Origin: Brumimicrobium sp.
Lineage (GTDB): Bacteria; Bacteroidota; Bacteroidia; Flavobacteriales_D; Crocinitomicaceae
Direction of reading: 5' to 3'
NCBI GenBank assembly: GCA_023957385.1
Contig: JAMLGZ010000001.1
Location: 854,923-918,922, forward strand
Length of the DNA: 64,000 nt
The notes beneath the pieces are model-generated. The model ran no database searches and was not told the DNA's origin. It saw only the letters and a program-made list of their open reading frames with translations. Shown here one piece after another: positions 7,281-62,177 of this stretch (the stretch's first letter is position 1; every line of letters starts with the position of its first letter). The position numbers and the translations under genes are program-made.

Positions 7281-7673
7281 TTAATTTAATATTTCAAACT
7301 TTTTCCTGGTCTTTTGAAGTTCAGATTTAGCTTGGTAGAAATACATTCCATTTTCAAATTGAGTGGTATCTACTTGGATGATATTTCCACCTTTTTGATA
7401 CTCTTTCTTCTCAATTACTTTGTGAATACCTTTGTCTATTGAAAAGATAGTGATTTCAATCTCTTTTGGAAAATGCATTTCAATAAATATCTGAATTGTT
7501 CCTTTTGCAGGTTCGTTCTCTATAGGATGAAGAATAAAATAATTCTCACGATTAATCCTTCCTTCTTTAAATTTCTTAAGTAACAATCTGTATAAAATAA
7601 TAAAGATAATGATGGAAAATGTTGTCCATGCTATATATCGGGTGATGATTACTATATCAATAGCTAATAACAT
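7281..7673 (-). CDS. Membrane-anchored protein with a T9SS-tail-like beta domain
   Basis: A 130-residue protein with one strong transmembrane helix (residues 12-29, TTFSIIIFIILYRLLL) followed by a basic stop. The remaining 85 residues follow the strand pattern of type IX sorting tails: an HPIENEPAKGTIQI opening, ITIFSIDKGIHKVIEKKEY in place of the usual D-x-x-G-K-V hairpin, then FENGMYFYQAKSELQKT and a closing KFEIL strand. Sorting tails normally end secreted proteins with cleavable signals, so this inner-membrane anchoring is unusual. It lies one base from the DUF493 gene in a three-gene operon. The fold similarity is inferred. Confidence 0.6.
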   Translation of the reverse strand: MLLAIDIVIITRYIAWTTFSIIIFIILYRLLLKKFKEGRINRENYFILHPIENEPAKGTIQIFIEMHFPKEIEITIFSIDKGIHKVIEKKEYQKGGNIIQVDTTQFENGMYFYQAKSELQKTRKKFEILN

Positions 7674-19891: not shown

Positions 19892-22800
19892 ATGATACGA
19901 AAGCTCTACTTTGTGTTTCTAAGCATCACATTATCAGTAGGAATATCCTTTGGACAAGCTGGTAGTGGATCTATTAAAGGATCTGTTATTGATAGTAAGT
20001 CAAATAAGCCTATAGAAATGGTTAAGGTTGTTTTATACCAAGGAGGTATTATAAAAGGAGGAACAGATACAGATGAAAATGGAAAATTTGAATTCCCATC
20101 TATTACTGCAGGTTCCTATGATGTTGAATTTAGATCTTCTGAACATCAGCCATTAAAATTATCTGGTGTAGGTGTGTCTTCTGATCAAATCACATTCTTA
20201 GATAAAACCAAATTATCGAAACCAGATGATGTATTAAATCTAGAAGAGGTAGAGGTTGTAGCATATAAAGTCCCTTTGATTAAAAAAGATGGTGCTGCAC
20301 AAGGTTCTACGGTAACTAGAGAAGATATCGCAAAACTTCCTATTCGTACTGCTGCTGGTGTAGCTGCTACAGTTGGAGGGGTTAACGAAACAGATAATGG
20401 AGAAATATCAGTGAGAGGTTCTCGAGAAGGAGCAACTTACTATTATATTGATGGTATCAAAGTAAGAGGTTCTTCTAACTTACCAAAATCTGCATTAGAG
20501 GAAGTTCAGGTAATTACTGGGGGGGTTCCTGCTAGTTATGGTGACGTAACAGGTGGTATTATTGCAGTAACTACAAGAGGTCCTTCTTCCGTTTATTTTG
20601 GAAGTATTGAAGGAGTTACTTCAGGTTTTTATTTTAAAGGAAAAGACCCAATCGGATATGATGGTAAAGTTTATGGTTTAGATAACTATGCATATAATCT
20701 TGTAGAAGGTATGGTTTCTGGTCCACTATGGATGAGAAAAGATAAAGATGGTAATAAGACAGAACCTATTTTAGGATTTTTATTATCTGCCACTTATAAT
20801 TATCAAAAAGACCCAAGACCATTAGCTGGTGGTTCTTGGAGAATTAAGAAAGAAGCAAGAGAAGCTTTATTAAATGAACCTTTACGTCCGTCTTCTAGTG
20901 GTTCTGGTAATTTTGATAACTCTAACTTCTTAAGAATGGATGATTTTGAAAAGACAAAATTCAAAATGAATTCTCAGCGTACAGTTATTTCTGCTGCTGG
21001 TAAGATTGATGTAAATACAGGACCAACTGTAAACTTGACATTCGGAGGATCTTTGAACTATAACTATGGTAAAGTTTATAGCTACTATAATTCACTTTTC
21101 AACTTTGAAAATTTTGGTAATCAAGATGTGCTAGACTGGAGAGTTTATGGTCGTTTTAGACAAAGTTTTAAAAATACAACTGAAGGTTCTAGCTCAAAAG
21201 TAAAAAGCTTCTATTATAACTTAATGGTTGACTATTCTAAGTCTTATAATAAGTTATATGATGACAAACATGGGTATGATATATTTAATTATGGACATGT
21301 TGGATACTATAATACTACATGGGAACCAACTTTCTCATTTAATTCTTCTGGTGATAGTTTAGTGCAAGATGGTTTTAAATCTGTTATTGTAGATTATACA
21401 CCTTCTGATATAAATCCAACATTTGCTGCTATTACTAGTCAGTATTATAAAATGAATCCAGATCCAATTGGAAAATATGAAAACTTACAGCAGATTAACC
21501 AAAATGGAGCGTTGAGAAATGGAGATAGATTGTCTGATGTGTATGGTCTATGGTATAGTTTAGGTACTCCTTATGGAGATCTTTATAAATCAGAAAATGA
21601 TCAGTTAAGAGTAACAGGTTCTGCCTCAATTGTTGTAGGAGGACACAACATCTCTTTGGGAGTAGAATATGAACAGAGATGGGATAGAGGATGGGGGTCA
21701 GGAAGAAACTTCTCTTCATCAGGACAAGACCCAATAGGAATTTGGACTATTGCACGTCAGTATATGAATAGCCATATTTCTGAGTTAGATCTAGATAATC
21801 CTATTCTTTTAGGTAGTGTGGGTGGTTATCCAAAAATTGGTTATAACAGATTGAATACAGGATATGCAGCAAATGCTGGTAATGGTAATTATGGAGGTGC
21901 TGCTCACAATGATGAGCAATATTTCTTTGATTATAATTTCAGAAAAGAAATTGGTTTAAATCCTGCCGGTAATGACTTCGTAGATATCGATGAATATGAC
22001 CCAAATGTTTTTAGTCTAGATATGTTCTCAGCTGATGAGTTATTTAATCAAGGGCAAAACTTTATCGGATATTACGGATACGATAAAAATGGTAAGAAAG
22101 TAAAAGGAGTAACTGATATTAATAAGTATTTCAATGACTTTGATGAGAATGGTAACTATAAGAGATTTGTAGGTGCATTCCAGCCAACTTATATTGCGGG
22201 ATACATTATGGATAAATTCTCTTTTGATAATATCGTATTTAACGTAGGTGTACGTGTGGACGTATTTGATGCAAATCAACCAAAATTGAAAGACCCATTC
22301 TTATTCTTCAATGCAAGAGACGTTAGAGAGGCTAAGAAAGTAAAATCACAAGATCCATCTAACTATGACTGGGTAAATATTCCAGGAAGTATGGGAGAAG
22401 ATTATGTAGTGTACGTGAACGATGTTACAAATCCAACTCAAATCAATGGATTTAGAAGTGGAGAAACTTGGTATGATGCAAATGGAGATCAAGTGCAAGA
22501 CCCTTCTGTTATCAGAGGTAGTGCAGGTATTGCTCCTTGGCTAACTAATCCAAGTCAAACAACACCAACTGCTGATGCATTTGAAGATTATAAAGTAGCT
22601 ATAAACGTAATGCCTCGAATAGCTTTCTCTTTCCCTATTTCGGATGAGGCTAACTTCTTTGCTAACTATGATATCTTGACAAGAAGACCAAATACAGGAA
22701 TACGTTTTGATCCAATCGATTATCAATTTATCACTACAAGAAGTGGATCTATTATTAATAATGCAAACTTACGACCTGAAAAAACTATTGATTACTCTTT

Positions 22801-23665
22801 CGGTTTCCAACAAGTTGTAACAAGAACTTCTTCTATTAAAGTAAGTGCATTCTATCGTGAACAAAGAGATATGATTCAGATTAGAAACTTATTTGAAGCA
22901 TATCCTTCTACATATAAAACTTATGGTAACAGAGACTTCGGTACTGTAAAAGGTGTTACTATAGAATATGATTTAAGAAGAACAGGCAATATCCGTTTGA
23001 CTGCAAACTATACCCTACAGTTTGCTGATGGTACAGGGTCTGATGCTAATTCAGCATTATCTTTTGTTAACTCAAACCAGCCTGACTTAAGAACTATTTA
23101 TCCTCTTTCTTATGATCAAAGACACTCTTTTGCATTTACAATTGACTATCGTTATGGTGATGGTGCTGACTATAATGGTCCTTCGATTAAAGGTGTAAAA
23201 TTATTTGAGAATATGGGACTTAATATCGTAACCTTAATTAATTCAGGTTCACCTTATTCTAAGCAAAAGAATATTAACTCTGCTGCTATGATTAGTCCTA
23301 GCTCTAGTCAAATGACAGGAACTTTAAATGGTTCTAGAAAACCTTGGACGTATAGTTTAGATTTACAAATTGATAGAACTTGGGAGTTACAATTTGGTAA
23401 AGATGAAAATAAGAAAAAATACGCTTATTTGAATGTTTATTTAAGAATCACCAACCTTTTAAATCATAAAAACGTAATCAATGTGTATAGAGCAACAGGT
23501 ACTCCAAATGATGATGGATACTTAGCTGCAGCTGAATGGCAAAACTCTATCCAAAGTAAATTGGATGAGCAGTCTTTCAGAGATTTATATAAAATGTCTG
23601 TAGAAAACCCATACAATTATAGTATGCCTAGAACTATCAGATTAGGAGTTAAATTTGATTTTTAA
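19892..23665 (+). CDS. Large TonB-dependent receptor of unknown ligand
   Basis: A 1257-residue outer membrane protein. It has a signal peptide (1-22), a carboxypeptidase-like regulatory beta-sandwich (SGSIKGSVIDSKSNKP onward to about 115), a plug (120-240, with RTAAGVAATVGGVNETDNG and IDGIKVRGSS) and a long barrel ending in RTIRLGVKFDF with terminal Phe. It is larger than siderophore receptors and resembles the protein- or peptide-linked receptors of Bacteroidota. It is followed after 30 bases by a 1399-residue exported protein and then a PorV/PorQ-family gene, so its job is probably tied to them. It has no SusD partner. Confidence 0.88.
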   Translation: MIRKLYFVFLSITLSVGISFGQAGSGSIKGSVIDSKSNKPIEMVKVVLYQGGIIKGGTDTDENGKFEFPSITAGSYDVEFRSSEHQPLKLSGVGVSSDQITFLDKTKLSKPDDVLNLEEVEVVAYKVPLIKKDGAAQGSTVTREDIAKLPIRTAAGVAATVGGVNETDNGEISVRGSREGATYYYIDGIKVRGSSNLPKSALEEVQVITGGVPASYGDVTGGIIAVTTRGPSSVYFGSIEGVTSGFYFKGKDPIGYDGKVYGLDNYAYNLVEGMVSGPLWMRKDKDGNKTEPILGFLLSATYNYQKDPRPLAGGSWRIKKEAREALLNEPLRPSSSGSGNFDNSNFLRMDDFEKTKFKMNSQRTVISAAGKIDVNTGPTVNLTFGGSLNYNYGKVYSYYNSLFNFENFGNQDVLDWRVYGRFRQSFKNTTEGSSSKVKSFYYNLMVDYSKSYNKLYDDKHGYDIFNYGHVGYYNTTWEPTFSFNSSGDSLVQDGFKSVIVDYTPSDINPTFAAITSQYYKMNPDPIGKYENLQQINQNGALRNGDRLSDVYGLWYSLGTPYGDLYKSENDQLRVTGSASIVVGGHNISLGVEYEQRWDRGWGSGRNFSSSGQDPIGIWTIARQYMNSHISELDLDNPILLGSVGGYPKIGYNRLNTGYAANAGNGNYGGAAHNDEQYFFDYNFRKEIGLNPAGNDFVDIDEYDPNVFSLDMFSADELFNQGQNFIGYYGYDKNGKKVKGVTDINKYFNDFDENGNYKRFVGAFQPTYIAGYIMDKFSFDNIVFNVGVRVDVFDANQPKLKDPFLFFNARDVREAKKVKSQDPSNYDWVNIPGSMGEDYVVYVNDVTNPTQINGFRSGETWYDANGDQVQDPSVIRGSAGIAPWLTNPSQTTPTADAFEDYKVAINVMPRIAFSFPISDEANFFANYDILTRRPNTGIRFDPIDYQFITTRSGSIINNANLRPEKTIDYSFGFQQVVTRTSSIKVSAFYREQRDMIQIRNLFEAYPSTYKTYGNRDFGTVKGVTIEYDLRRTGNIRLTANYTLQFADGTGSDANSALSFVNSNQPDLRTIYPLSYDQRHSFAFTIDYRYGDGADYNGPSIKGVKLFENMGLNIVTLINSGSPYSKQKNINSAAMISPSSSQMTGTLNGSRKPWTYSLDLQIDRTWELQFGKDENKKKYAYLNVYLRITNLLNHKNVINVYRATGTPNDDGYLAAAEWQNSIQSKLDEQSFRDLYKMSVENPYNYSMPRTIRLGVKFDF

Positions 23666-23695
23666 GTATTGAGATAAAATAAGAAACATAAAATT

Positions 23696-26600
23696 ATGAT
23701 TATGAAAGTTTTTTTAGCAACGTTTTTCTTTTTAGGCTTATCAATCGGTATATATGCCGAACAAGATCCTACGAGTATAGGAAATAAGAATGGTACGAAG
23801 CCAACTGGAAATATATACGATAAAGCAAATTGTCCACCTTCTAATGCTAGACTCTTTATGGACTTCAATGATGTTAAAGCACTTGTAGAAGTTGGGGGGT
23901 CTCTTTGGCAAAATAGACAGACTAATTCGGCTTCTTATGAAGTTCCTGCAGGAAGTGGTAATAGAGTTTTATATTCTGGATCTATCTGGATGGGAGGTAC
24001 AGACGTTAATAACCAATTAAAGTTGGCTGCAATCTTATTTAGACAGGGTGAAGAATTTTGGGCTGGACCTCTTTCTCAAAATGTGGGCTCTGGTAACTAT
24101 GACCCTATGCAACCTGTGGGATTTGATGCAATCCGTGATTATGGTGCGGCCACTATCGATCCAGATGTTTGTATGCAATATGATAAATTCTTTACTATTG
24201 CTAAACAAGAAGTAATCAACTATACATTAGCATTCCAATGTAATCAAAATCCGGATTGTGATGATGAATTCCCACTTTCTAATGATGCATTAAATAGAAT
24301 TAATAATTGGCCAGCACACGGAGATGTAAGTAGAGGGCAAGATTTTTACTTAGCTCCTTTTTATGATGCGGCAATTGGTGGCGGTACAGGTGATGGTATA
24401 TATGATCCTACTCAAGGAGATACTCCTTGGTTTGATGATATTTTAGGAAGAGATGATGTTGAATGTGGTATTGATAGACGTGTTACATTATTCGGTGACG
24501 TTACGAATTGGTGGGTATTTAATGATAAAGGAAATATTCATACTGAGACAGGAGCAGATCCTATTGGTATGGAAATTCACGCACAAGCATTCTCATTTGC
24601 CACAAATGATGAGGTGAATCGTATGACTTTCTATAATTATGAAATGATTAACCGTAGTACACAGACTTTATACAATACTTACTTCACACAATATGCTGAC
24701 CCAGATGTTGGTTTCTCTGAGGATGACTATATTGCTTGTGATGTATCTAGAGGTCTTGGTATTGCTTATAATGGTGATAATTTTGATGAAGGACAAAGCG
24801 GTGCTCCTGGATATGGTGATAACCCTCCTGCGGTAGGTATTGATTTCTTTGAAGGACCTTATCAGGATGCTGATGGAAAAGATAACTTAGGACCACATAG
24901 AATTACAAATCCTGATGGCACTAAAACTTATGTTGTACCTACTGTTGCTGATGCTATTGCAGACAAAGGTATTGTGTACGAGGGAATTGGTATTGGTTAT
25001 TCAGATGGTATTATTGATAATGAGCGTTTCGGTATGCGTCGTTTCAATTACTTTAGTCGTCCAGACCTTGCCCCATCTTCTGCAGAGGATGATCCTAAAA
25101 CTGCAGGAGACTTCTACAACTATATGACAGGAAAATGGAAAGATAATTCCAAAATTTACTATGGAGGTACAGGATATACAGGAAGTAATGGGGTAACTTC
25201 TATTGAATCTAGATATACTTATCCTGGTGATTCTGACCCACTTCATTGGGGAACAGATGGTGTTGATCCTGGATTTAAATGGTCAGAAATCAATATCGAT
25301 GGAAATAATGCTTCGAATACGAAGAATGACCGTCGTTTCTTACAAACAGCTGGACCATTTACTCTAACTCCTGGTGCGGTAAATAACTTAACAGTTGGAG
25401 TTGTTTATGGACGTGCATTTGAAGGGGATGCTTCAAAATCTATTGATGTGGTTAGAAAGAATGATACTAAAGCGCAAGCTTTATTTGATAATTGTTTCAA
25501 AATTATGGATCCTCCTACAGCTCCAGTTTTGAAAATTGTTGAGTTGGAAAATGAGTTAGTTCTTTTATTGGATAACCCTTATGGAAATAATGTTAATGAA
25601 ACTTTTGCTGAAGAAGATAATATTAATATTCCTGATCCAGTTGACGGCTCTTCAATAGATAAAGTATATACGTTTGAAGGATATCAGATTTACCAAATGA
25701 AAGATCTTGAATCAGGCGTTTCTGATATTGGAGATGTAGATAAGGCTCGTCTAGTTGCACAATGTGATATTGAGAATGATATTAAGCGAATCATTAATTT
25801 TGAATACAATGAAAGTCTCGGATTTTCTGTGCCTGTTGAAAAGGTGAATGGAGAAAATCGTGGCATCAGACACTCATTTAGTATCACACAAGATGCGTTT
25901 ACTAATAAGAAATTAGTAAATCATAAGACATACTATTATATTGCTATAGCTTATGCTCATAATGAGTTTAAGCCTTATAGCCCAACTGACCCTGATTTAG
26001 TTGATGGACAGCAAATTCCATATATCAGTTCTCGTTTAGGTTCTGACGGAAAAGCTATTAAAGCAAAAGCAGGTATTCCACATTCTCCTAAGCCAAATAA
26101 TGATGGTACAATTGCTGGTTTGCCTTATGGCTCTTCTCCTCAAATTACAACTCTTGATGGTAGAGGAAATGGTGGTCGCGCAATTGATTTAACAAAAGCG
26201 TCTGAAGACTTTATTGTAAAAAATGGTTCCATAGATACTCCTACTTATCAAGTTGGTAAAGGACCTATTGATGTTAAAGTAATAGATCCAATTAATCTAG
26301 TTGGTGGTTATTTCTTGTTAACTTTTGATAACTACACAAAAATTGATACTGCTAGTTGGACACTTTCTAGATATTCTTCTAAAGGAGGTGAACTTCTGGG
26401 TTCTATTAAATCTCAACGTTCTATTAGTTATAAAAATGAGCAATTGATTCCTGAATGGGGTATATCTGTAGCTATAAATCAAGATTTCTATCCTTGTGCA
26501 GATGGTAGCCCAAATTGTAATTTTAGAGCACGTTTAGCTATTCCAATTGAATCTTCTATTTCTTTTGCTGACTCTTCAAAGAGATGGTTGTCTGGAGTTC

Positions 26601-27895
26601 CAGATGTTACATCTTTTGATCCTAGAAACTGGATTATGTCTGGTAGCTATAATGAAACTTCTGCATGTAATCCTGATGCTGGCATTTATAACCCTTGTTG
26701 CTATAATGATTTAGTTGGTGCCGATCCACAAAGATTATTTGCAAAATTAATTAATGGTACTGTAACGCTAGGACAGGTTGCTCGAAGAAATGATTGTGGA
26801 TATACTCCTATTGGTTTACCGACTACTGCAGGAATAACTAATTCAACTTTCAGTTCTTTATCTTCTCTCGAGATGCCTTCAGTTTATCAAACGAGTGTGG
26901 ATATTGTATATACCTCTGATAAATCTAAATGGACACGATGCCCTGTTATAGAATTAGGTATAGATCCAAACTTAAACTTAAATGGAGGTAAACCTGGTTT
27001 ATTGCGTAAGAGCCCTTCTGTAGATAAGAATGGTAAAAAAGTTGGTGATGCAGGATATAATGCTTCTGAGGCTGACCCTGATGGAACAACTCCTACAGGT
27101 ATGGGTTGGTTCCCTGGATATGCTATCGATGTTGAAACTGGTAGAAGATTGAATATGGCTTTTGGAGAAAATTCCTTCTTATCCGGACAAAACGGTGCTG
27201 ATATGATTTGGAATCCTACCACTGATATATTTAATCAAGATGGATTCCCTGTATTAGGAGGACAACATATTGTATATGTATTTGGTAAAATTAATGGTAC
27301 AATGCCTGTGTATGATGAGGGTGTATTTGTACATACAAATCTAAAAGCTGAGAATTCAACTGGATACAAAGAAGTATATAAAAATTTATCTTGGGTTGTG
27401 AATCCATTATTGGCTACTGGACAAAAGTTATTATCTACTGATGTTAGAATGAGAATTCGAATTAATCAACAGTATGATAATTATTCAATGACTGGTGCTT
27501 TTGGAGGTAAGCCAACTTATGAGTGGAATATGAATAAATTCCAAACTATTAAGAATGATAAGGAAACCCTAGCTGATGTATTAGATATGATTAATGTAGT
27601 TCCAAACCCTTATTATGCTTATTCCGAGTATGAAAGAGGTCGTTTGGATACAAGAGTGAAAATTACAAACTTACCTGAAAGATGTAAAGTGAGAATCTAT
27701 AACACTTCTGGTAAATTAATTAGAGCTTTTGATAAAGATAGCCCAATAACTTCTATTGATTGGGATTTGAAAAATGGAGATAATATTCCTGTAGCTGGTG
27801 GTGTATATATCATTCATGTTACTGTGGAAGGTGTGGGAGAGAAGGTTGTTAAATTCTTTGGTGGAATGAGAGCACCAGATTTGGAAAACTTATAA
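23696..27895 (+). CDS. Giant exported protein with T9SS/FlgD-like C-terminal domain
   Basis: A 1399-residue protein with a signal peptide (to about residue 22, ending IGIYAEQ; a second ATG two codons in is also possible). The body is rich in Asp, Asn, Gly and Thr, suggesting beta-propeller or calcium-binding folds, but no catalytic family was recognised. Early Cys and Trp motifs include KANCPPSNARLFMDFNDV and SIWMGGTDVNNQLK. The last hundred residues begin MINVVPNPYYAY and continue RVKITNLPERCKVRIYNTSG and GGVYIIHVTVEG, a T9SS-tail-like sandwich. It lies between a TonB receptor and a PorV-like protein, so surface display through T9SS is likely. Confidence 0.8.
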   Translation: MIMKVFLATFFFLGLSIGIYAEQDPTSIGNKNGTKPTGNIYDKANCPPSNARLFMDFNDVKALVEVGGSLWQNRQTNSASYEVPAGSGNRVLYSGSIWMGGTDVNNQLKLAAILFRQGEEFWAGPLSQNVGSGNYDPMQPVGFDAIRDYGAATIDPDVCMQYDKFFTIAKQEVINYTLAFQCNQNPDCDDEFPLSNDALNRINNWPAHGDVSRGQDFYLAPFYDAAIGGGTGDGIYDPTQGDTPWFDDILGRDDVECGIDRRVTLFGDVTNWWVFNDKGNIHTETGADPIGMEIHAQAFSFATNDEVNRMTFYNYEMINRSTQTLYNTYFTQYADPDVGFSEDDYIACDVSRGLGIAYNGDNFDEGQSGAPGYGDNPPAVGIDFFEGPYQDADGKDNLGPHRITNPDGTKTYVVPTVADAIADKGIVYEGIGIGYSDGIIDNERFGMRRFNYFSRPDLAPSSAEDDPKTAGDFYNYMTGKWKDNSKIYYGGTGYTGSNGVTSIESRYTYPGDSDPLHWGTDGVDPGFKWSEINIDGNNASNTKNDRRFLQTAGPFTLTPGAVNNLTVGVVYGRAFEGDASKSIDVVRKNDTKAQALFDNCFKIMDPPTAPVLKIVELENELVLLLDNPYGNNVNETFAEEDNINIPDPVDGSSIDKVYTFEGYQIYQMKDLESGVSDIGDVDKARLVAQCDIENDIKRIINFEYNESLGFSVPVEKVNGENRGIRHSFSITQDAFTNKKLVNHKTYYYIAIAYAHNEFKPYSPTDPDLVDGQQIPYISSRLGSDGKAIKAKAGIPHSPKPNNDGTIAGLPYGSSPQITTLDGRGNGGRAIDLTKASEDFIVKNGSIDTPTYQVGKGPIDVKVIDPINLVGGYFLLTFDNYTKIDTASWTLSRYSSKGGELLGSIKSQRSISYKNEQLIPEWGISVAINQDFYPCADGSPNCNFRARLAIPIESSISFADSSKRWLSGVPDVTSFDPRNWIMSGSYNETSACNPDAGIYNPCCYNDLVGADPQRLFAKLINGTVTLGQVARRNDCGYTPIGLPTTAGITNSTFSSLSSLEMPSVYQTSVDIVYTSDKSKWTRCPVIELGIDPNLNLNGGKPGLLRKSPSVDKNGKKVGDAGYNASEADPDGTTPTGMGWFPGYAIDVETGRRLNMAFGENSFLSGQNGADMIWNPTTDIFNQDGFPVLGGQHIVYVFGKINGTMPVYDEGVFVHTNLKAENSTGYKEVYKNLSWVVNPLLATGQKLLSTDVRMRIRINQQYDNYSMTGAFGGKPTYEWNMNKFQTIKNDKETLADVLDMINVVPNPYYAYSEYERGRLDTRVKITNLPERCKVRIYNTSGKLIRAFDKDSPITSIDWDLKNGDNIPVAGGVYIIHVTVEGVGEKVVKFFGGMRAPDLENL

Positions 27896-27927
27896 TAATT
27901 AGAAACTGATACTAAATTTTGTAAATA

Positions 27928-28992
27928 ATGAAAATAACAAAATCGATAATTAGTAGTTCCTTAATTCTTGGATCATTCTTGTTGAATTTGAATCTTTATG
28001 CGGGAAATGAAGACCGAATTGGTTCGGCAGGTGCTAGTGAAATTTTAGTAAACCCTTGGGCACGTTCATCTGCTTTTGGTTCAGCAGGTGTTGCTAGCAC
28101 AGAAGGAATTGAAGCTCAATTCTCTAATATTGCAGGACTAGCCTTTGTGGATAAAACTCAAATTAAGTTTAATTATACAAATTGGTTGGGGAGTGCTGGT
28201 ATTTCTTTAAATTCTGCCGGTATAGCACAGCGTGTTGGAGCACAAACTGTTATAGGTGTTTCATTTCAAGCTTTTGGCTACGGGGCAATTGATATAACAA
28301 CAGTTGATTTGCCAGAAGGAGGTATTGGACAATTTACACCTAGAAAAAATATAATCAATGTTGGTGTAGCACATACTTTCTCTAATTCTATCTATGCAGG
28401 TTTGAACATGAAGATTGTTACTGAAAATATAGCGAACCTTCGTACTTCTGGAGTGGCTTTTGATGCAGGTGTTCGTTATATTACAGGTAAAGAAGAGCAA
28501 GTTAAGTTTGGTATTACATTACGTAACGTTGGAACTCCGATGACCTATAAAGGTGACGGACTTTCTAAAGAAATTATGTATCAATCAACTAGTGGTGTTG
28601 CTACTATGGTTCAAAGATCTGCTTCTTTTGAAATGCCTTCTTCTTTAGCTCTTGGTTTTGCTTATGATTTTAATTTCAATGAAAATAATAAGTTGACATT
28701 AGGACTTGCTTTTGTGGCTAATTCATTTACTAATGACCAATTAAATGTTGGTTTAGATTATGGTTTGTCTTTTGGTAAAGCCGCATTAAATATTCGTGCT
28801 GGTTATGTAGGTGAAAAGACAATCTTTAGTAAAGATAAAAGATCTACTAGTCTAACTGGATTTACAGCAGGTGTATCTGTAGATGCTCTTTTAGGAGAAA
28901 AGAAAATGCCGCTTGGATTTGAATATGCAATGCGCTTATCTAATCCATTTGGTGTTATTCACTCTTTTGGAGTTTCTTTTAGTCTAAAATAA
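27928..28992 (+). CDS. PorV/PorQ-family outer membrane protein
   Basis: A 354-residue FadL-like barrel protein of the PorV/PorQ family. It has a signal peptide (1-25), then the N-terminal signature GSAGASEILVNPWARSSAFG and GIEAQFSNIAGLAF, followed by repeated barrel strands. PorV shuttles T9SS cargo to the attachment complex, and PorQ relatives have related or unknown roles. This copy follows the 1399-residue exported protein by 32 bases and looks dedicated to it. A terminator follows. It is not the core porV of the T9SS locus as far as context shows. Confidence 0.85.
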   Translation: MKITKSIISSSLILGSFLLNLNLYAGNEDRIGSAGASEILVNPWARSSAFGSAGVASTEGIEAQFSNIAGLAFVDKTQIKFNYTNWLGSAGISLNSAGIAQRVGAQTVIGVSFQAFGYGAIDITTVDLPEGGIGQFTPRKNIINVGVAHTFSNSIYAGLNMKIVTENIANLRTSGVAFDAGVRYITGKEEQVKFGITLRNVGTPMTYKGDGLSKEIMYQSTSGVATMVQRSASFEMPSSLALGFAYDFNFNENNKLTLGLAFVANSFTNDQLNVGLDYGLSFGKAALNIRAGYVGEKTIFSKDKRSTSLTGFTAGVSVDALLGEKKMPLGFEYAMRLSNPFGVIHSFGVSFSLK

Positions 28993-29031: not shown

Positions 29032-29066
29032 GCGAGAGAGTCATTGGCTCTCTTGCTTTTTGTTTT
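29032..29066 (+). terminator. Rho-independent terminator of the PorV-like operon
   Basis: A 9-bp stem (GCGAGAGAG with CTCTCTTGC, one G-T pair), a 7-base loop and a T-run. It falls inside an upstream TTG-initiated extension of greA, which rules that extension out. Confidence 0.85.
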
Positions 29067-39982: not shown

Positions 39983-41515
39983 ATGAAGAAAAAATTACTA
40001 ATAGGTTCATTATTATTTACTACTACTTTATTTGGCCAATTATCTATGGAGTGGAGCAAATCAACTAATCCTGGAAGTGGGGATGTGAATTTTAATGACG
40101 TGGCTGAAATGGCAGATGGAGGAAGTATAGCTGTTGGCTGGGCATACCATGATGTATATTCTGATGATTTGCCAGCTACAGGTTACCAAGGGGGAAAGGA
40201 TATCTTAATACAAATAAGAGATGCGGATGGAAACATCGATTATGAAGATAATACAAAAAATTATTATTGGGGAGGTACAAAGAATGAAGAAGCATATCGT
40301 GTCAAAAAAACTTCAGATGGAGGTTTCATTATTTGTGGGTATTCTATATCAGTTATAGATGGACAAGGAGATGGTAGTCACAAATGTGGTTTAGTAATTA
40401 AATTAGACAATCAAGGCCAGCAAGAGTGGTTTAAACTTCGTAAAATAGGATCTAACGATTTTGAAATTCGAGATATTATAGAAAACATGGATGGTTCTTT
40501 TACGTATGTTGGCTATGTTCAATCAGGAACAACTCCACGGCTTTATGTTGCGAAGTTAGATACAGATGGGTCTATTATTTGGAGTAATACCTATTTTGAT
40601 GGGCCACAATATTATAGGGTCAAAGGACATTCTATCGCAGAAACCTCAGATGGCGATTTTATTGTTTTAGGGTCTTCTGATGATATGATTAGTTATTCAG
40701 GTAAAGTATCTGGAGACTATGATCTCTGCCTTATACATCTAAGTTCAAGTGGTGCTGTTATTTCTAAGAAAGGATTTGGAGGTTCTGGGGTAGAGAAGTT
40801 TGCACAGATTCAACGTACTTCAGATAATAATTTCGTTATTATAGGTACCACGACTTCAAATAATGAAGCTTTCTCAATGAACACAGCTGGAAATATGCAG
40901 GTGTATGTGTTAAAGGTAGATGCAGACTTAACCAAATTATCTCTAAAAACATTTGGAGGTTCATTGGAAGAATATGTTTGGGATACGATGAGTTTTGTGG
41001 AAGAAGCAGATGGAAAACTTACTATTTGTGCAGATACAAAATCAAATAATGGGAATGTTGTAGGATCACAAGGAGAAAGAAATATATGGATATTTCGTAT
41101 ATCAGCAAATGGTAATGTATTATATTCAAGTAATTGTTTTGGAGGAAGTAATCTTCTATATGCCAGAGGATTTACAAACTTGTCTACTGGGGGCTATCTA
41201 ATTGTGGGTGCAGATGGAACAAATGATAATTATTGGCAAGGATATACTATGAAAATTAATGAAAACACTTCTGGATTTGATATTAATATGGATAATGCAA
41301 TTAGTATTTATCCGAACCCAACTAGAAATATACTGCATGTAGAAGGTCTAGAGAAGAGTGAAAAGTTTGTTTTGACCAATATGCTTGGACAAGAAATGAT
41401 GCGTATTAGTTTGGATGAAAATAATTCTAAATTCTCAATGGAAACTCTTCCGAATGGTATTTATTTCTTGAGAAATTCAGACTTATCTATCTCAAAGAAA
41501 ATTATAAAAGAATAA
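39983..41515 (+). CDS. T9SS-secreted protein with repeat domain
   Basis: A 510-residue secreted protein. The signal peptide is MKKKLLIGSLLFTTTLFGQ. The body consists of about seven blade-like repeats with the pattern T-x-DGGFIICGYS, DGSFTYVGYVQSG and DNNFVIIGTTTS, as in delta-60 or propeller repeats of Bacteroidota surface proteins. The last 75 residues are a T9SS type A sorting domain (ISIYPNPTRNILHV, LTNMLGQEMM and NGIYFLRNSD). The role is unknown; adhesion or extracellular sensing is possible. It is followed by a similar cargo gene behind a perfect palindrome. Confidence 0.85.
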   Translation: MKKKLLIGSLLFTTTLFGQLSMEWSKSTNPGSGDVNFNDVAEMADGGSIAVGWAYHDVYSDDLPATGYQGGKDILIQIRDADGNIDYEDNTKNYYWGGTKNEEAYRVKKTSDGGFIICGYSISVIDGQGDGSHKCGLVIKLDNQGQQEWFKLRKIGSNDFEIRDIIENMDGSFTYVGYVQSGTTPRLYVAKLDTDGSIIWSNTYFDGPQYYRVKGHSIAETSDGDFIVLGSSDDMISYSGKVSGDYDLCLIHLSSSGAVISKKGFGGSGVEKFAQIQRTSDNNFVIIGTTTSNNEAFSMNTAGNMQVYVLKVDADLTKLSLKTFGGSLEEYVWDTMSFVEEADGKLTICADTKSNNGNVVGSQGERNIWIFRISANGNVLYSSNCFGGSNLLYARGFTNLSTGGYLIVGADGTNDNYWQGYTMKINENTSGFDINMDNAISIYPNPTRNILHVEGLEKSEKFVLTNMLGQEMMRISLDENNSKFSMETLPNGIYFLRNSDLSISKKIIKE

Positions 41516-41571: not shown

Positions 41572-43359
41572 ATGAAAACACGGTTACTTATACTATTACT
41601 TTTTATAGGGACATCTTTTATCAATGCACAGAATTATTCCATACAATTGTTGAAGAATATTAATCCGAATGGTAGTTCTAGCCCGAATTCATTTTTTGAA
41701 TTCAATGATAAAGTATATTTTGCAGCAGATGATGGCATAAATGGATCAGAATTATGGGTAACTGATGGTACTGCGTTAGGTACTAAGATGGTTAAAGATT
41801 TAAACCCTTCTGAGAGCAGCAATCCGCATAATTTTTTTGTATTTAATAATAAACTCTACTTCATCGCATCTAATCACACGAATACCAACCCAGAATTTAT
41901 TAATGATGAGATATGGATGACGGATGGTACGGCTTCTGGGACTCAAATGTTGAAGGATATAAAACCAGGTATCTTTTCCAGTGACCCACAAATCTTATAT
42001 GTAGATCAGGATATCTTCTATTTTTCTGCAGATGATGGAGTAAACGGTGTTGAACTGTGGGTGTCTGATGGAACACCACTAGGTACAAAGTTGTTAAAGA
42101 ATATAAATCCAGGTAGTGGAGGTAGTAATCCACGTTCATTTATTTTATTTGAGAATAATTTATTCTTTGTAGCTACTAATGGTATAAATGGTTATGAAAT
42201 TTGGCAAACAGATGGAACAATGTCAGGGACACAGCTTTTAAAAGATATAAACCCAGGCAATGCAAGTTCTAACCCCAACAATTTTACCATTTTGAATAAT
42301 AAACTCTATTTTTCTGCAAATGATGATATGAATGGTATGGAATTATGGGTTACTGATGGTACTTATACTGGAACAACTTTAGTTAAAGATATTCGTGTTG
42401 GTGGAGATGGTAGTAATCCTTCTAATCTTGCTGTTTGGAATAATAAAATCTATTTTGCAGCAGATGATGGTGCAAATGGAGTAGAGTTGTGGGTGACAGA
42501 TGGTACGGCATTAGGTACAAATATGGTTAAAGATTTAAACTCTTCTCAGAGCAGCAATCCACATAATTTTTTTGTATTTAATAATAAACTTTATTTCATC
42601 GCTTCTAACCATACGAATACCAACCCAGATTTTATTAATGATGAGATATGGATGACGGATGGTACGGCTACTGGGACTCAAATGTTGAAGGATATAAGAC
42701 CAGGTATCTTTTCTAGTAACCCACAAATCATATACGTAGATCAGGATATCTTCTATTTTTCTGCAGATGATGGAATGAATGGAGTTGAATTATGGAAGTC
42801 AGATGGGACTACAATTGGGACTCAAATGTTAAAAGATATAAATGGTCCTGGTGGTAGTAACCCAATGGGAATGCTTGTATGGAATGGAAATTTTTTCTTT
42901 ACTGCAGATGGAGGTAGTTCTTTTAGCGATATTCAATTATGGAGGACAGATGGAACCTATTCTGGTACAGAGATGCTCCTTCCTAGCTTCAATCCTAAAT
43001 ATAATTCATTAGCGACAACAAACTATTTTGTTTATCAAGGGGACTTCTATTTTACTGCAAATTATAATAATACTATTGGACTTGAATTGTATAAGTTTAC
43101 GGATTTAACATTAGACATATCAGATGATACAGCAATAGGAACGATTGCGATATATCCAAATCCAACTCAAGATATATTGACTGTGGAAGGATTAACTAAA
43201 GTAGAGATATTTAGTATCACAAATGATCTTGGTCAGGAGGTATGGAGATCTATATTAGGAAAAGATAAAAATACTTTCTCTATTGAGAATTTACCAAATG
43301 GAATCTACCTATTACATAACCGAGATTATACTATCCAGAAAAAGGTGATTAAAGAATAG
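41572..43359 (+). CDS. ELWxxDGT-repeat T9SS-secreted protein
   Basis: A 595-residue protein with signal peptide (1-19). It is built of ELWxxDGT repeats: each unit shows FNNKLYF, ADDGxNGxELWVTDGT, a Gly-Thr turn and KDINPG, about eleven times, implying a beta-propeller or solenoid. The T9SS type A sorting tail starts at IAIYPNPTQDIL. Two long blocks, 245 codons apart, are nearly identical in DNA and protein, a recent internal duplication. It probably sits on or leaves the cell surface; the ligand is unknown. Confidence 0.88.
   Translation: MKTRLLILLLFIGTSFINAQNYSIQLLKNINPNGSSSPNSFFEFNDKVYFAADDGINGSELWVTDGTALGTKMVKDLNPSESSNPHNFFVFNNKLYFIASNHTNTNPEFINDEIWMTDGTASGTQMLKDIKPGIFSSDPQILYVDQDIFYFSADDGVNGVELWVSDGTPLGTKLLKNINPGSGGSNPRSFILFENNLFFVATNGINGYEIWQTDGTMSGTQLLKDINPGNASSNPNNFTILNNKLYFSANDDMNGMELWVTDGTYTGTTLVKDIRVGGDGSNPSNLAVWNNKIYFAADDGANGVELWVTDGTALGTNMVKDLNSSQSSNPHNFFVFNNKLYFIASNHTNTNPDFINDEIWMTDGTATGTQMLKDIRPGIFSSNPQIIYVDQDIFYFSADDGMNGVELWKSDGTTIGTQMLKDINGPGGSNPMGMLVWNGNFFFTADGGSSFSDIQLWRTDGTYSGTEMLLPSFNPKYNSLATTNYFVYQGDFYFTANYNNTIGLELYKFTDLTLDISDDTAIGTIAIYPNPTQDILTVEGLTKVEIFSITNDLGQEVWRSILGKDKNTFSIENLPNGIYLLHNRDYTIQKKVIKE
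41753..42056 (+). repeat. Internal direct repeat, first copy
   Basis: A stretch of about 300 bases repeated with few substitutions at a constant offset of 735 bases (second copy 42488-42791). No frame change occurs. It includes codons for SSNPHNFFVFNNKLYFIAS in both copies. Confidence 0.85.
42488..42791 (+). repeat. Internal direct repeat, second copy
   Basis: The partner of 41753-42056 within the same ELWxxDGT gene. Most differences are silent or conservative, for example Glu to Asp and Lys to Arg. Confidence 0.85.
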
Positions 43360-56978: not shown

Positions 56979-59900
56979 ATGAAACTGATGTTCTATACTC
57001 TTGTATTCCTATTTTTTGGATTTCTAACAACAAGCATTTACGCTGATTCGTATGTTTTAACTGGAGAGGATGCCTCTAAAAGAATTGAAAATACTCAAGT
57101 TATTCGATACAATGATCGAAGTCCATTACCCAATTATATTCAGTTTAAAGTTGGGTATTATTTACCAAAACAAAATTTTAATACTTGGACAGCTCAATTC
57201 TTTCGAGGAAGTGGGGGTAATACAACATTTCAATATGTAAATCAAGTAAATGATCAAATAGGATATACACATGATGTATATCAACAGATGATTTATGGAA
57301 TTCCTGTTCAGTTTGGTGTTATTAAAACACATGCTAGAGGGAATGATATCTATTCTATTAGTGGGGAAATGTATCCTGCTACTGTGAATGTATCTATAGC
57401 TGCTATAAGTGAGCAAGCAGCTTTAAATAAAGCACTAACGTTTATTGGAGCTCAAAAATATATGTGGCAAGATGCAGATCAAGAGAAACATTTTAAGTGG
57501 GAACAAGAAAATCCGGATACAACATATTTTCCCACAGGAAGTCTTACCTATATATATAAAGATAATGAACCATCCAATCTTATGCGTTTAGCATATAAGT
57601 TTGACGTGTATGCCGAAATTCCTTTGAGTAGAAGATATATTTGGGTAGATGCAGTTACAGGTGAGATTTTATATGAGAATAATATATTATGTCATGCAAA
57701 CGCTACGGGTACAGCTCAAACACAATACAGTGGAACTCAAACAATCACAACAGATAAGGTAAATAACAACCAATATCGTTTGAGAGAAACTGGGAGAGGA
57801 GCGGGAAATACGGATGTTCAAACCTTTAATATGAAGAAAGGAACCAATTATGGAAATTCTGTGGATTTTACCGATACAGATAATAATTGGAACAATGTAA
57901 ATGCAAATAAGGATCAATACGCTACGGATGCACATTGGGGGCAAGAGATGACAGTTGATTATTTTTGGTTAAAACATAACAGAAATAGTATCAATGGGAA
58001 TGGTATGGCAGTTAAAGGCTATGTTCATTACAGTACTAACTATTTGAATGCCTTCTGGGATGGGTCAAGAATGACCTATGGAGATGGATCTCAAGGATAT
58101 AATCCATTAACATCTATTGATATCGCTGCACATGAAATTACACACGGGGTGACTCAATATACAGCGGGATTAAATTACCAAAACCAATCTGGGGCATTGA
58201 ATGAATCATTTAGTGATATTTTTGGAAATAGTATTGAATATTTTGCAAAACCAGGTGGGGCTAGCTGGCAAGTCGGAGAAGGTTTGGGTGGAGCTGCTTT
58301 TAGAAGTATGTCTAATCCTAAAAGTTTTGGAGATCCCAATTGCTATCAGGGGCAATATTGGTACACAGGTACGGGAGATAATGGAGGTGTTCATCAAAAT
58401 AGTGGTGTTCAAAATTTTTGGTATTATTTGATGGTCCAAGGAGGTGCTGCAACCAATGATTTGGGAAATGCTTACAATGTTACAGGAATTGGTTGGACTT
58501 CTGCTTCTGAGATTGCTTATAGAAATCTAGCACATTATTTAAGTGCAAATAGTACCTATGCTGATGCAAGATTCTATGCAATACAATCTGCAGAGGATTT
58601 GTTTGGACCATGCTCTCAAGAATATGTTACCACTACCAATGCATGGTATGCGGTTGGAGTTGGAAGTGCATATTCTGGATCAGCTGTTAACGCGAGTTTT
58701 GCAGGAACTCAAACTACTTGGTGCTCAGTGCCTCATCAAGTAGATTTTGCTAATACGGGTTCTTCGGGTAGTGGAATTACTTATTTATGGGACTTTGGTG
58801 ACGGAACAACTTCAACGAACCAAAATCCGTCACACACCTATACAAGCTTTGGACAATATGATGTAACACTTACAGTTACATCTACCTCTTGTGGTTCAGA
58901 TGTAGAAACTATAACAAATTTTATTAATATTGACCCAAACAATGATTGTTATAGTTGTGATACCTTAAATTTACCACCTCCAGGCACCTTAACAGTATAT
59001 GGTACTCAGCAAGGAGGTTATATAACAGGATGGAATGGTTATCATGATAAATGTATTACCAATAAATTTACCAATTTCACACCTTATTCTCAGGTTACGG
59101 GAGCCTTTATCTATTTCTATTATTTGTATGATGGAGGCAACAATGCGCAAGTTGAGATTAATATATGGGATAATACAGGTACAGGAGGAAATCCTGGAAA
59201 CATCATAGGTACAGAAACAATTTCTCTCTTAAATTTAGCGAATATATTAAATGGACATGGAATTTTGTACATTGATTATCCATCTCCAATAACTGTGACA
59301 CCAGAATATTACCTTGGTGTAAGAATGCTAGGTTTTGGTGCAACAGATTCACTTGCCATTGTGTCTAATAAAGATGGAGACTCACCAGTGGATATGGTAT
59401 GGATCCAGGAGAGTAATAATACATGGGGTAGTTTTTCTAGTCAGTGGGGTGGGACTTCCTTAGATTGTTATATTTCACCAATAATGACAGAAACTCCTCC
59501 ACAGGCTATTATAACTCCAAGCGCACTTACTATTTGTACAGGTTCTTCTATTCATTTTGATGGAACGGGTTCTCTGAATGTGGGTAGCTATTCTTGGAAT
59601 TTCCCCAATGGAAGTGTTACCAACTCTACAGATGGTGAAATAGATGTTTCTTATGCTACACCAGGAACTTATAAGGCTTATTTACATGTAGTTGGTGGTT
59701 GTTCAGGGGTTGATGTTGACTCTGTTACCATCACAGTAACGAATGGATCTAATATAAACATTGCAGCTTCTCAGACAACGATTTGTGAAGGCGAAAGTGT
59801 AACCTTAGTAGCAAGTGGAGGATCAAATTATTCTTGGGATAATGGGTTGGGGAATGGATCAACAAAGACTGTATCTCCGACTTCAACGACAACTTATACA

Positions 59901-62177
59901 GTTTCTTCAAGTGTAGGTGGATGTACCTCAGTAAAAACAATTCAAATTACTGTGAATTCCATCCCTGATGTCATAATTAACGCATCTCAAACTTCTATTT
60001 GTGAAGGTGAGAGTGTTACGCTGGAGGCTAGTGGAGCTTCCACATATTCATGGAGTAACGGTCTAGGTAATGGTGCAAATAAAACTGTTACACCAACTCA
60101 AACTACAAGTTATACTGTAACTGGAACTACTGGATCTTGCTTTGATACTGAAACAATACAAATTCTAGTTAATCCTACTCCTATTGTTTCAATCACTGCT
60201 TCACAAGCAGTTATTTGTGCAGGTGATGATGTTACTCTGGAAGCTAGTGGCGCATCTATATATACATGGGACAATGGTTTAGGTGGTGGATTTTCACACG
60301 TAGTTTCTCCAACATCAACTACAACATATGTAGTAACAGGAACTATGGGAGGATGCTCAGCAACCGCTTCGATAGAAATAACTGTTGTTCCAGCTATCGA
60401 TGTAAATATTGCTGCATCTCAAACGACAATTTGTCCAGGTGATGATGTAACGCTAACTGCTAGTGGTGCATCTAATTATGCCTGGGCTGATGGTTTGGGT
60501 ACTGGATCTAGTATTGTTGTGACTCCTACTCAAACTACAACTTATGAGGTAACTGGTACTTCCGGCGGTTGTGTTGATACAGAGACAATTGAAATTGTTG
60601 TTGCACCATCCATAGATATTCAAGTTGTAGCATCCCAGACAACTATTTGCTCTGGAGAAGATGTTACTTTAACGGCTAGTGGAGCTTCTAGTTATTCGTG
60701 GGATAATGGTTTAGGCTCTGGAGCAGTTCAAGTTGTGTCTCCAACCCAAACTACAACTTATGAGGTGACTGGTACTTCAGGAAACTGTGTTGATACTGAG
60801 ACGATTGAAATTATAGTTGAGCCTGGTGTTAATTTAAGTATCACCGCTTCTCAATTGACTATTTGCACAGGTGATGATGTTGTGCTTACTGCTAGTGGAG
60901 CAGCTTCATATTCATGGGATAATGGATTGGGTACAAATAGCTCCATTACTGTTTCACCTACTTCAACTACAACGTATAGTGTAACAGGTACTTCTGGAAA
61001 TTGTTCTGATAGTGAAACGATTGAAATTATTGTAGTTCCTGGAGTTGCTGTTTCTATTTCTTCTTCTCAGCCTGCCGCATGTATGGGTGATACAATTACT
61101 TTAACGGCAAGTGGAGCTGGTACTTATACATGGTCGAATGGTTACGGAACGGGCACATCTATTCAAGTAACTCCTTCTCAAACAACAACCTATGAGGTGA
61201 CTGGAGTTGCTGGTTCATGTAGCGGATCTGAAACCATAGAAATTGTGGTAAATCCATTACCGACTGTTAATTTATCAGCATCTGAAACTAGTATATGTAA
61301 CAATGAAGATGTTACTTTAATGGCTAGTGGAGCTGATAGTTATGTTTGGAATAATGGTTTGGGAAATGGTTCTATTCAAATTGTTTCACCAACTCAAACT
61401 ACAGTTTATACTGTATATGGAGCGGATAACTCGACAGGATGTGAAAATTCGGCATCTGTTACAATTTATGTGGGAGAAGGACAGGTTGTTTCGGCAACTG
61501 CTTCTACTCTATCTATTTGTGCTGGTGATACTGTTTATATGAATGCTTCAGGAGCTAATAATTATTCTTGGACACCTTCAGGTGATATTGTTGAAACTTC
61601 AGTTGATGGTTCTAATATTACTGCAGTTCCTAGTCAATCTACTGATTATACGGTCATAGGTAGTGGAAATTGTGGAGCTGGTTTTCAAACTATTCATATT
61701 ACTGTCTATGATTATCCAAATCCAAGCATTACCCAATATGGAAATACTTTGGTGGTGAATCTTCAAATTGGCGAGTCTGCTGAATGGTTCTTAAATGGTG
61801 TGTCTATAGGAAATGAGCCTAGTATAAATATTACTGAAGATGGCGATTATACAGTGATAGTTAATAATGGTGGTTCATGCTCTTCTACTCTTAGTGGTCA
61901 TTTTATCTACGATACAACTAGCTTACTAGAAGAAATAGCAAATAATCTTAAGATTTATCCTAATCCAACAAATGGTAAGTTTATTGTCGAATGGAGTACT
62001 TCTATTCACATGAAAGATATTATTGTAATGGATGTAATTGGTCGGGTTATTATGAATCTCCAAACAGATAATTCAACTACTCAATCGATTGATTTAACTG
62101 AATTTGAAACTGGAGTATATGTGTTACAAATGATTACTGAGAATGGAGCAATCAATAGAAAAGTAACGAAAAGATAA
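56979..62177 (+). CDS. Secreted M4 (thermolysin-like) metalloprotease with PKD/Ig repeats and T9SS tail
   Basis: A 1732-residue secreted protease. Order: signal peptide (1-22), FTP/PepSY propeptide (about 30-235), then the M4 domain with HEITHGVTQY (zinc His385 and His389), NESFSDIFG (zinc Glu409, 24 residues after His385 as in thermolysin) and NGGVHQNSGVQ (transition-state His). A PKD domain (YLWDFGDGTTSTNQNP), a jelly-roll-like region and a second PKD domain follow. Nine Ig-like repeats and a T9SS type A tail (IYPNPTNGKF) end it. It degrades protein outside the cell. It is transcribed alone and ends in a terminator. Confidence 0.93.
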   Translation: MKLMFYTLVFLFFGFLTTSIYADSYVLTGEDASKRIENTQVIRYNDRSPLPNYIQFKVGYYLPKQNFNTWTAQFFRGSGGNTTFQYVNQVNDQIGYTHDVYQQMIYGIPVQFGVIKTHARGNDIYSISGEMYPATVNVSIAAISEQAALNKALTFIGAQKYMWQDADQEKHFKWEQENPDTTYFPTGSLTYIYKDNEPSNLMRLAYKFDVYAEIPLSRRYIWVDAVTGEILYENNILCHANATGTAQTQYSGTQTITTDKVNNNQYRLRETGRGAGNTDVQTFNMKKGTNYGNSVDFTDTDNNWNNVNANKDQYATDAHWGQEMTVDYFWLKHNRNSINGNGMAVKGYVHYSTNYLNAFWDGSRMTYGDGSQGYNPLTSIDIAAHEITHGVTQYTAGLNYQNQSGALNESFSDIFGNSIEYFAKPGGASWQVGEGLGGAAFRSMSNPKSFGDPNCYQGQYWYTGTGDNGGVHQNSGVQNFWYYLMVQGGAATNDLGNAYNVTGIGWTSASEIAYRNLAHYLSANSTYADARFYAIQSAEDLFGPCSQEYVTTTNAWYAVGVGSAYSGSAVNASFAGTQTTWCSVPHQVDFANTGSSGSGITYLWDFGDGTTSTNQNPSHTYTSFGQYDVTLTVTSTSCGSDVETITNFINIDPNNDCYSCDTLNLPPPGTLTVYGTQQGGYITGWNGYHDKCITNKFTNFTPYSQVTGAFIYFYYLYDGGNNAQVEINIWDNTGTGGNPGNIIGTETISLLNLANILNGHGILYIDYPSPITVTPEYYLGVRMLGFGATDSLAIVSNKDGDSPVDMVWIQESNNTWGSFSSQWGGTSLDCYISPIMTETPPQAIITPSALTICTGSSIHFDGTGSLNVGSYSWNFPNGSVTNSTDGEIDVSYATPGTYKAYLHVVGGCSGVDVDSVTITVTNGSNINIAASQTTICEGESVTLVASGGSNYSWDNGLGNGSTKTVSPTSTTTYTVSSSVGGCTSVKTIQITVNSIPDVIINASQTSICEGESVTLEASGASTYSWSNGLGNGANKTVTPTQTTSYTVTGTTGSCFDTETIQILVNPTPIVSITASQAVICAGDDVTLEASGASIYTWDNGLGGGFSHVVSPTSTTTYVVTGTMGGCSATASIEITVVPAIDVNIAASQTTICPGDDVTLTASGASNYAWADGLGTGSSIVVTPTQTTTYEVTGTSGGCVDTETIEIVVAPSIDIQVVASQTTICSGEDVTLTASGASSYSWDNGLGSGAVQVVSPTQTTTYEVTGTSGNCVDTETIEIIVEPGVNLSITASQLTICTGDDVVLTASGAASYSWDNGLGTNSSITVSPTSTTTYSVTGTSGNCSDSETIEIIVVPGVAVSISSSQPAACMGDTITLTASGAGTYTWSNGYGTGTSIQVTPSQTTTYEVTGVAGSCSGSETIEIVVNPLPTVNLSASETSICNNEDVTLMASGADSYVWNNGLGNGSIQIVSPTQTTVYTVYGADNSTGCENSASVTIYVGEGQVVSATASTLSICAGDTVYMNASGANNYSWTPSGDIVETSVDGSNITAVPSQSTDYTVIGSGNCGAGFQTIHITVYDYPNPSITQYGNTLVVNLQIGESAEWFLNGVSIGNEPSINITEDGDYTVIVNNGGSCSSTLSGHFIYDTTSLLEEIANNLKIYPNPTNGKFIVEWSTSIHMKDIIVMDVIGRVIMNLQTDNSTTQSIDLTEFETGVYVLQMITENGAINRKVTKR
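59751..61717 (+). repeat. Nine tandem Ig-like repeats in the M4 protease gene
   Basis: Nine units of about 71 codons, each with ASQTTIC-x-GDDVTL-x-ASGAS-Y-x-WDNGLG, TPTQTTTYEVTGTSG and a closing ETIEIVV strand. Each has one early and one late Cys, probably a disulfide. Units 4 to 6 are most alike, suggesting recent expansion; units 8 and 9 are most divergent. Confidence 0.9.

What the first reader, a model, noticed from the sequence alone, without database searches (positions are those of the whole stretch)
19892..28992. TonB receptor, giant exported protein and PorV/PorQ-like protein form a three-gene surface system of unknown function
Three plus-strand genes with gaps of 30 and 32 bases, an upstream promoter and a terminator at the end encode a 1257-residue TonB receptor, a 1399-residue exported protein with a T9SS/FlgD-like tail, and a PorV/PorQ-family barrel. 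PorV shuttles T9SS cargo, so a PorV-like protein next to one giant cargo and a TonB receptor suggests a dedicated secretion-and-uptake machine. The cargo's body matches no family I recognise.
Basis: partly seen in the sequence, partly recalled or inferred. Interest (0 to 1): 0.65.

Follow-up and report, generated by a model that had tools for sequence, protein, structure and literature searches.

The report
Conserved receptor–surface protein–anchor gene trio
Three neighbouring genes of a marine Bacteroidota bacterium form a gene set kept together across much of the phylum, and they probably build a surface uptake device in which a large exported protein is held by its own membrane anchor above a nutrient receptor, a layout that does not seem to have been described as a family before.

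Summary
TBDR 19892-23665, giant 23696-27895 and PorV/PorQ-family barrel 27928-28992 lie in tandem (gaps 30 and 32 bases), followed by a strong terminator. The trio is ancient: 37 of 40 giants sampled across the phylum show TBDR-giant-barrel on one strand; the other 3 run off a contig. All 52 sampled genomes with the giant have the T9SS channel gene sprA; none of 82 sprA-less genomes has the giant. Cassette barrels form their own clade, apart from PorV, PorQ and PorV2. The giant's first ~600 residues model as a sugar-enzyme-type beta-supersandwich. Its tail is a T9SS signal domain closest to that of PorZ, which stays uncleaved and is held by PorQ. Diverged cassettes sit in sugar loci (GH2/GH3/GH94, LacI), and a published Rhodothermus alginate locus carries the same trio. 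Best reading: the T9SS exports the giant, its uncleaved tail docks in the dedicated barrel, and it captures ligand for the TBDR, like SusCD but unrelated by family. Order, clade, sprA link and folds are computed; docking, uptake and ligand are inferred. The window copy lies beside housekeeping genes; its ligand is unknown. New variant of a known kind.

The parts
19892..23665 (+). TonB-dependent receptor, 1257 aa: N-terminal signal, CarboxypepD_reg extension (res 27-120), plug (res 135-222), barrel ending in F
   Evidence: found directly upstream of all 40 giants over 150 bits sampled across the phylum; no SusC/RagA (TIGR04056) match
23696..27895 (+). giant exported protein, 1399 aa
   Evidence: relatives in 99 of 100 genomes of the family, full-length matches mostly 46-74% identical
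23828..25510 (+). giant, residues about 45-605: galactose-mutarotase-like beta-supersandwich, as in the N-domains of GH15/GH65/GH94/GH116
   Evidence: AF2 model (pLDDT 70, pTM 0.68) and VIA-align Z 17.7 to about 14, about 250 residues, rmsd 3-4; Foldseek E 1.4e-4
25511..27580 (+). giant, residues about 606-1295: beta-rich linker and middle region, fold not assigned, least conserved part from 791
   Evidence: 58% and 45% mean identity; fold searches inconclusive here
27581..27892 (+). giant, residues about 1296-1399: T9SS C-terminal domain of PorZ type, with a conserved extension after the last strand; best conserved part of the protein (71%)
27928..28992 (+). PorV/PorQ-family outer-membrane barrel, 354 aa, own clade: proposed dedicated carrier and anchor
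29032..29066 (+). intrinsic terminator closing the three-gene unit before greA

Best explanation
[quoted passage not shown] (1) The giant crosses the inner membrane by its N-terminal signal and the outer membrane through the common SprA translocon, using its C-terminal domain (inferred from the tail fold and strict co-occurrence with sprA). (2) Its PorZ-type tail is picked up by the barrel encoded next to it rather than by general PorV, and stays docked there uncleaved, as PorZ does on PorQ and SprB on SprF (inferred). (3) Held this way, the giant, with its sugar-enzyme-type supersandwich, stands over the neighbouring TonB-dependent receptor and captures or presents a ligand that the receptor imports with TonB energy (inferred). 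It thus works like SusCD, with a T9SS-delivered, barrel-anchored surface protein in the place of the SusD lipoprotein. Diverged copies do this for particular sugars; the window holds the conserved core copy, whose ligand is unknown.
For: Gene order and strand kept in 40 full loci from named genomes (DNA) and for 37 of 40 phylum-wide giants plus 3 at contig edges, with gaps of about 0-150 bases. All 52 giant-bearing genomes have sprA, 0 of 82 sprA-less genomes have the giant (hypergeometric p 1.9e-6, not corrected for kinship). Cassette barrels are one clade (53 rows, SH-aLRT 100) apart from PorV (99), PorQ (99) and PorV2 (100). Tail closest to PorZ by sequence (30.9 bits; in the own genome second only to PorZ itself) and by structure (5m11, Z 10.6, rmsd 2.0, 89 residues, 29% identity, other T9SS tails 7.2-7.7). 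The tail is the best conserved domain. PorZ keeps its tail and is anchored by PorQ (PMC5562754). Supersandwich fold. Diverged cassettes lie next to GH94, GH3, GH2, CBM9, CBM20/48, LacI, ROK and sodium:solute symporters. Published Rhodothermus marinus alginate locus: tonB, T9SS-tail protein, PorV/PorQ protein, alginate lyases (PMC9530828). SusD absent from the window genome and 9 of 22 other cassette genomes.
Against: No binding, localisation or uptake was measured. The core cassette lies beside housekeeping genes (greA, HIT, ruvC here; serA, greA elsewhere), not sugar genes. Second copies of the giant stand alone, without TBDR or barrel, in the same family (L235-L241), so the giant need not always pair with its own TBDR; one tandem copy follows the barrel (L052). 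A few diverged loci have TBDR and barrel without a recognisable giant (L222, L230, L249) or another order (L250). Supersandwich domains also occur without sugar function (YidC periplasmic domain, Z 11.8). Genomes rich in SusD can also hold the cassette (G260, 66 SusD matches).
Confidence: 0.55

Rival explanations
1. The core cassette is an envelope-maintenance module rather than an uptake module: like PorQ-PorZ it holds a surface protein that handles lipopolysaccharide or other envelope sugars, and the TonB-dependent receptor supplies energy or a structural site.
For: Single conserved core copy next to housekeeping genes in several classes; PorZ-type tail and PorQ-like score of the barrel (77.6 bits against 70.5 for PorV); giant present in 99 of 100 genomes of the family.
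Against: Absent from large T9SS-bearing families of the same class (f3-f6), so not required for T9SS or the outer membrane in general; diverged copies are tied to sugar loci (PMC9530828).
Confidence: 0.2
2. The giant is an ordinary type A T9SS cargo, collected by general PorV, cleaved by PorU and fixed to LPS; the neighbouring barrel and TBDR are merely co-expressed.
For: Tail reaches the TIGR04183 cut-off at frame level (24.7 bits); two further relatives of the giant's N-terminal region in the genome carry ordinary tails and no barrel neighbour (L258, L259).
Against: The trio is conserved as a unit over the phylum with its own barrel clade; the tail is atypical for cargo (rank near the bottom of 128) and the most conserved part of the protein.
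Confidence: 0.15
3. The barrel acts only as a secretion carrier for the giant, and the giant is an adhesin or an enzyme; the TBDR takes up something that the giant releases (enzyme plus transporter, not a complex).
For: Fold relatives of the N-terminal region are parts of sugar enzymes; T9SS-tailed proteins flank diverged cassettes.
Against: The matched parts are the N-domains of these enzymes, not their catalytic (alpha/alpha)6 domains, and the models are mostly beta with no such domain; lyases and hydrolases are separate genes in the sugar loci (PMC9530828).
Confidence: 0.1

Closest known systems
SusC-SusD type glycan uptake pairs of Bacteroidota
   Same: TBDR with carboxypeptidase-like extension next to a surface protein; diverged copies in sugar-utilisation loci
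   Different: TBDR matches no SusC model, surface protein is not SusD and not a lipoprotein but T9SS-tailed, and a third gene codes for a PorV/PorQ-family barrel
PorZ-PorQ half of the T9SS attachment complex (P. gingivalis)
   Same: PorZ-type C-terminal domain paired with a PorV/PorQ-family barrel that anchors it
   Different: Body is a supersandwich, not PorZ's beta-propellers; barrel is a separate clade; a TBDR is part of the unit; own PorZ and PorQ exist elsewhere in the genome
SprB-SprF and other type B cargo with cognate PorP/SprF-like carriers
   Same: Giant cargo encoded next to its own FadL-type barrel; stand-alone cargo copies that may share a carrier
   Different: Type B tail and PorP-type barrel there, PorZ/type A-like tail and PorV-type barrel here; no TBDR in the SprB unit
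Alginate utilisation locus of Rhodothermus marinus (tonB-hypA-hypB, PMC9530828)
   Same: The same three gene types in the same order, among alginate lyases
   Different: hypA is only about 726 aa; annotated, with no function assigned to hypA or hypB; not recognised there as a wider family

Membership tests
PorV/PorQ family (NF033709) | score over the curated cut-off | tested here: met
   147.5 bits, cut-off 90
T9SS PorV, PorQ or PorV2 proper (NF033710, NF033711, NF052325) | score over the equivalog cut-offs; place in that clade | tested here: not met
   70.5/250, 77.6/220, 32.4/325 bits; own clade in the tree; the genome has each of the three elsewhere
T9SS cargo, type A-like | C-terminal domain of the T9SS fold / TIGR04183 | tested here: inconclusive
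   19.5 bits against 23 for the protein, 24.7 for the frame; fold match to PorZ tail Z 10.6, to RgpB, PorU and other T9SS tails 7.2-7.7
T9SS cargo, type A-like | found only where the T9SS translocon exists | tested here: met
   52 of 52 genomes with the giant have sprA; 0 of 82 without sprA have it
T9SS cargo, type A-like | surface location | not testable with these tools
   needs surface proteomics
T9SS cargo, type B (gliding C-terminal domain) | match to the type B tail model | tested here: not met
   no such model among NCBIfam matches up to E 1
PorZ | full-length PorZ model | tested here: not met
   only the tail matches, 30.9 bits against 260; a true PorZ is at C1:359297-361615
SusC/SusD | SusC/RagA model on the TBDR | tested here: not met
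   no SusC model among NCBIfam matches up to E 1; Plug and CarboxypepD_reg present
SusC/SusD | SusD protein beside the TBDR | tested here: not met
   no SusD_RagB match in the window genome
SusC/SusD (works like) | sugar-locus context | tested here: inconclusive
   met for diverged cassettes (PMC9530828), not for the core cassette of the window
TonB-dependent receptor | plug domain and outer-membrane barrel | tested here: met
   Plug PF07715 34.9 bits; barrel judged by length and ending only

The most novel reading that the evidence does not exclude
[quoted passage not shown] the window holds the conserved core copy.
Probability: 0.45. Interest if true: 0.8.

Novelty: new variant of a known kind. 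Interest (0 to 1): 0.62.

Why it matters
It would join two fields, TonB-dependent glycan uptake and type IX secretion, which are usually treated apart, and would give a role to many 'PorV/PorQ family' and 'T9SS sorting domain' proteins that now have none (8-21 such barrels per genome in 19 of the 22 cassette genomes searched). A 2025 study states that type A tails are all recognised by PorV (PMC12618676); dedicated PorV-like carriers for PorZ-type tails would qualify that rule, and a 2023 review proposed such barrels as the reason why some tails stay uncleaved (PMC10202324). It also suggests how lineages without SusD may take up glycans.

Tried and rejected
Sigma-70 promoter scan: no excess over shuffles. 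Link to the new Bacteroidota BAM complex (BamG is also FadL-type): rejected, since BamG/BamH are universal in the phylum while the cassette is missing from whole T9SS-bearing families (PMC12611786). Sequence profile of the N-terminal half against the PDB: nothing; TBDR against the PDB by single sequence: nothing. Fold of residues about 606-1295: no listed match that stands out, which does not show a new fold. The adiponectin hit of the tail profile is spread over three weak repeats and taken as chance. A heptaheme cytochrome-TPR gene looked like a fourth member, but it is lineage-limited and only its TPR part finds matches in the window genome. No complex could be modelled (single chains only).

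Full report
What is there. The window lies at G000:C1:854923-918922 of a 3.3 Mb genome whose nearest named relatives are Brumimicrobium species (Crocinitomicaceae, Flavobacteriales). The promoter claim is not supported by the scan. greA, whose likely start is the ATG at 29081, follows the terminator.

Domains. Gene 1 has a CarboxypepD_reg extension and a plug but matches no SusC/RagA model. Gene 2 matches no Pfam family over cut-off. Its residues 26-790 and 781-1399 were modelled from alignments of 22 and 21 sequences (mean pLDDT 70 and 78). Such a fold hints at sugars but does not prove it. The tail matches the PorZ C-terminal domain best (Z 10.6, rmsd 2.0 over 89 residues, 29% identity; Foldseek E 5.5e-7), above RgpB, mirolase, PorU and NucA tails (7.2-7.7). 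A tail profile also finds PorZ in the PDB by sequence (E 0.0026). In the own genome it is the best match to the PorZ tail after PorZ itself, while among 128 TIGR04183 tails it ranks near the bottom. The tail is the best conserved domain (71% mean identity to the window, against 58, 58 and 45%).

The barrel. Gene 3 is a PorV/PorQ-family member (147.5 bits) but far under the PorV, PorQ and PorV2 cut-offs. The genome has its own core PorV (next to a PorU-like gene with a T9SS tail), PorQ and PorV2, plus one small relative. In a tree of 118 rows, barrels of the core cassette from the window's family, its order, its class and other classes form one clade of 53 rows (support 100), separate from PorV (99), PorQ (99) and PorV2 (100). 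The tree is unrooted and made by the quick method.

Conservation of the trio. The giant is in 99 of 100 genomes of the family. In loci from named genomes, 40 giants have the TBDR upstream and the barrel downstream, 12 more have the TBDR and a contig edge, and one has an edge and the barrel. The exceptions are stand-alone or tandem second copies (for example L047, L061, L072, L085, and L052's second) plus L048. Across 392 phylum genomes, 52 have the giant at E <= 1e-30. Of 40 giants over 150 bits in the sampled phylum loci, 37 show the full order and 3 stop at a contig edge. A region with four weaker relatives and no TBDR or barrel (L123) lies below that threshold. All 52 genomes have sprA and none of the 82 genomes without sprA has the giant (p 1.9e-6, not corrected for kinship). 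Conversely, large T9SS-bearing families of the same class lack it.

Diverged cassettes. The 22 giant-bearing genomes searched hold 4 to 21 barrels of this family each. In G129, nine of the twelve extra barrels examined sit behind a TBDR and a protein with a giant-type tail; most extra barrels sampled in G214, G115 and G177 do as well. Their bodies vary from about 600 to 1420 residues. Around them lie GH94, GH3, GH2, CBM9, CBM20/48, LacI, ROK, sodium:solute symporters, SurA-like isomerases and further T9SS-tailed proteins. No background set was scanned for comparison other than the core cassettes, whose flanks include D-3-phosphoglycerate dehydrogenase, TPR/cytochrome genes, GTPases and greA. 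Independently, the alginate locus of Rhodothermus marinus was published with tonB, a T9SS type A protein (hypA) and a PorV/PorQ protein (hypB) among alginate lyases, with no role given to hypA or hypB (PMC9530828).

How it likely works. Known parallels are PorQ anchoring PorZ, whose tail is retained (PMC5562754), and type B cargo held by cognate PorP/SprF-like barrels (PMC9143113, PMC12618676). A review has suggested that cognate PorV-like barrels protect tails from cleavage (PMC10202324). On this basis I propose that the giant is exported by the common T9SS, docks by its uncleaved tail in its own barrel, and serves the neighbouring TBDR as outer capture protein. Shown by computation: order, clade, co-occurrence with sprA, folds, sugar context of diverged copies. 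Inferred: docking, tail retention, complex with the TBDR, import, ligand. The stand-alone giants of the family could share the barrel, as three orphan type B cargos share one carrier in F. johnsoniae (PMC12618676); this is untested.

Limits. The core copy's own surroundings are housekeeping genes, so uptake of a sugar is not shown for it. The literature search covered only openly licensed papers, so the statement that the family is undescribed holds for that library only.

Verdict. A real, ancient and probably general module; it may work like SusCD but is not a member by the SusC and SusD features tested. New variant of a known kind; interest 0.62.

Noticed in passing
L111, L113, L119, L120, L121, L122, L135, L140, L146, L147, L148 (gene after the barrel): In 11 sampled core cassettes of other classes a fourth gene codes for a TPR protein with seven CXXCH haem motifs and a lipoprotein-like start; in a few others the gene after the barrel carries a GWxTD domain.
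   Followed up: partly
L235-L241: Crocinitomicaceae genomes carry a second, stand-alone giant of about 1340 aa without TBDR or barrel neighbours; the window genome lacks it.
   Followed up: partly
L072, L065, L075, L061, L085: Several second copies of the giant are split into pieces or followed by further partial copies, as if decaying or misassembled.
   Followed up: no
window 39983-41515, 41572-43359, 56979-62177 (+) and 7281-7673 (-): Further T9SS-tailed proteins in the window, among 128 TIGR04183 matches in the genome; one is 1732 aa.
   Followed up: no
L258 7696-9264 and L259 6502-9393: Two own-genome relatives of the giant's N-terminal region carry ordinary T9SS tails and have no TBDR or barrel neighbours.
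   Followed up: partly
L097 (G000:C1:2115799-2116779): PorV2 of the own genome sits directly before a large secreted protein that reads like a second PorU-type protein (name by eye, not scanned).
   Followed up: no
L123: Four weaker giant relatives in a row with no TBDR or barrel in 20 kb.
   Followed up: no
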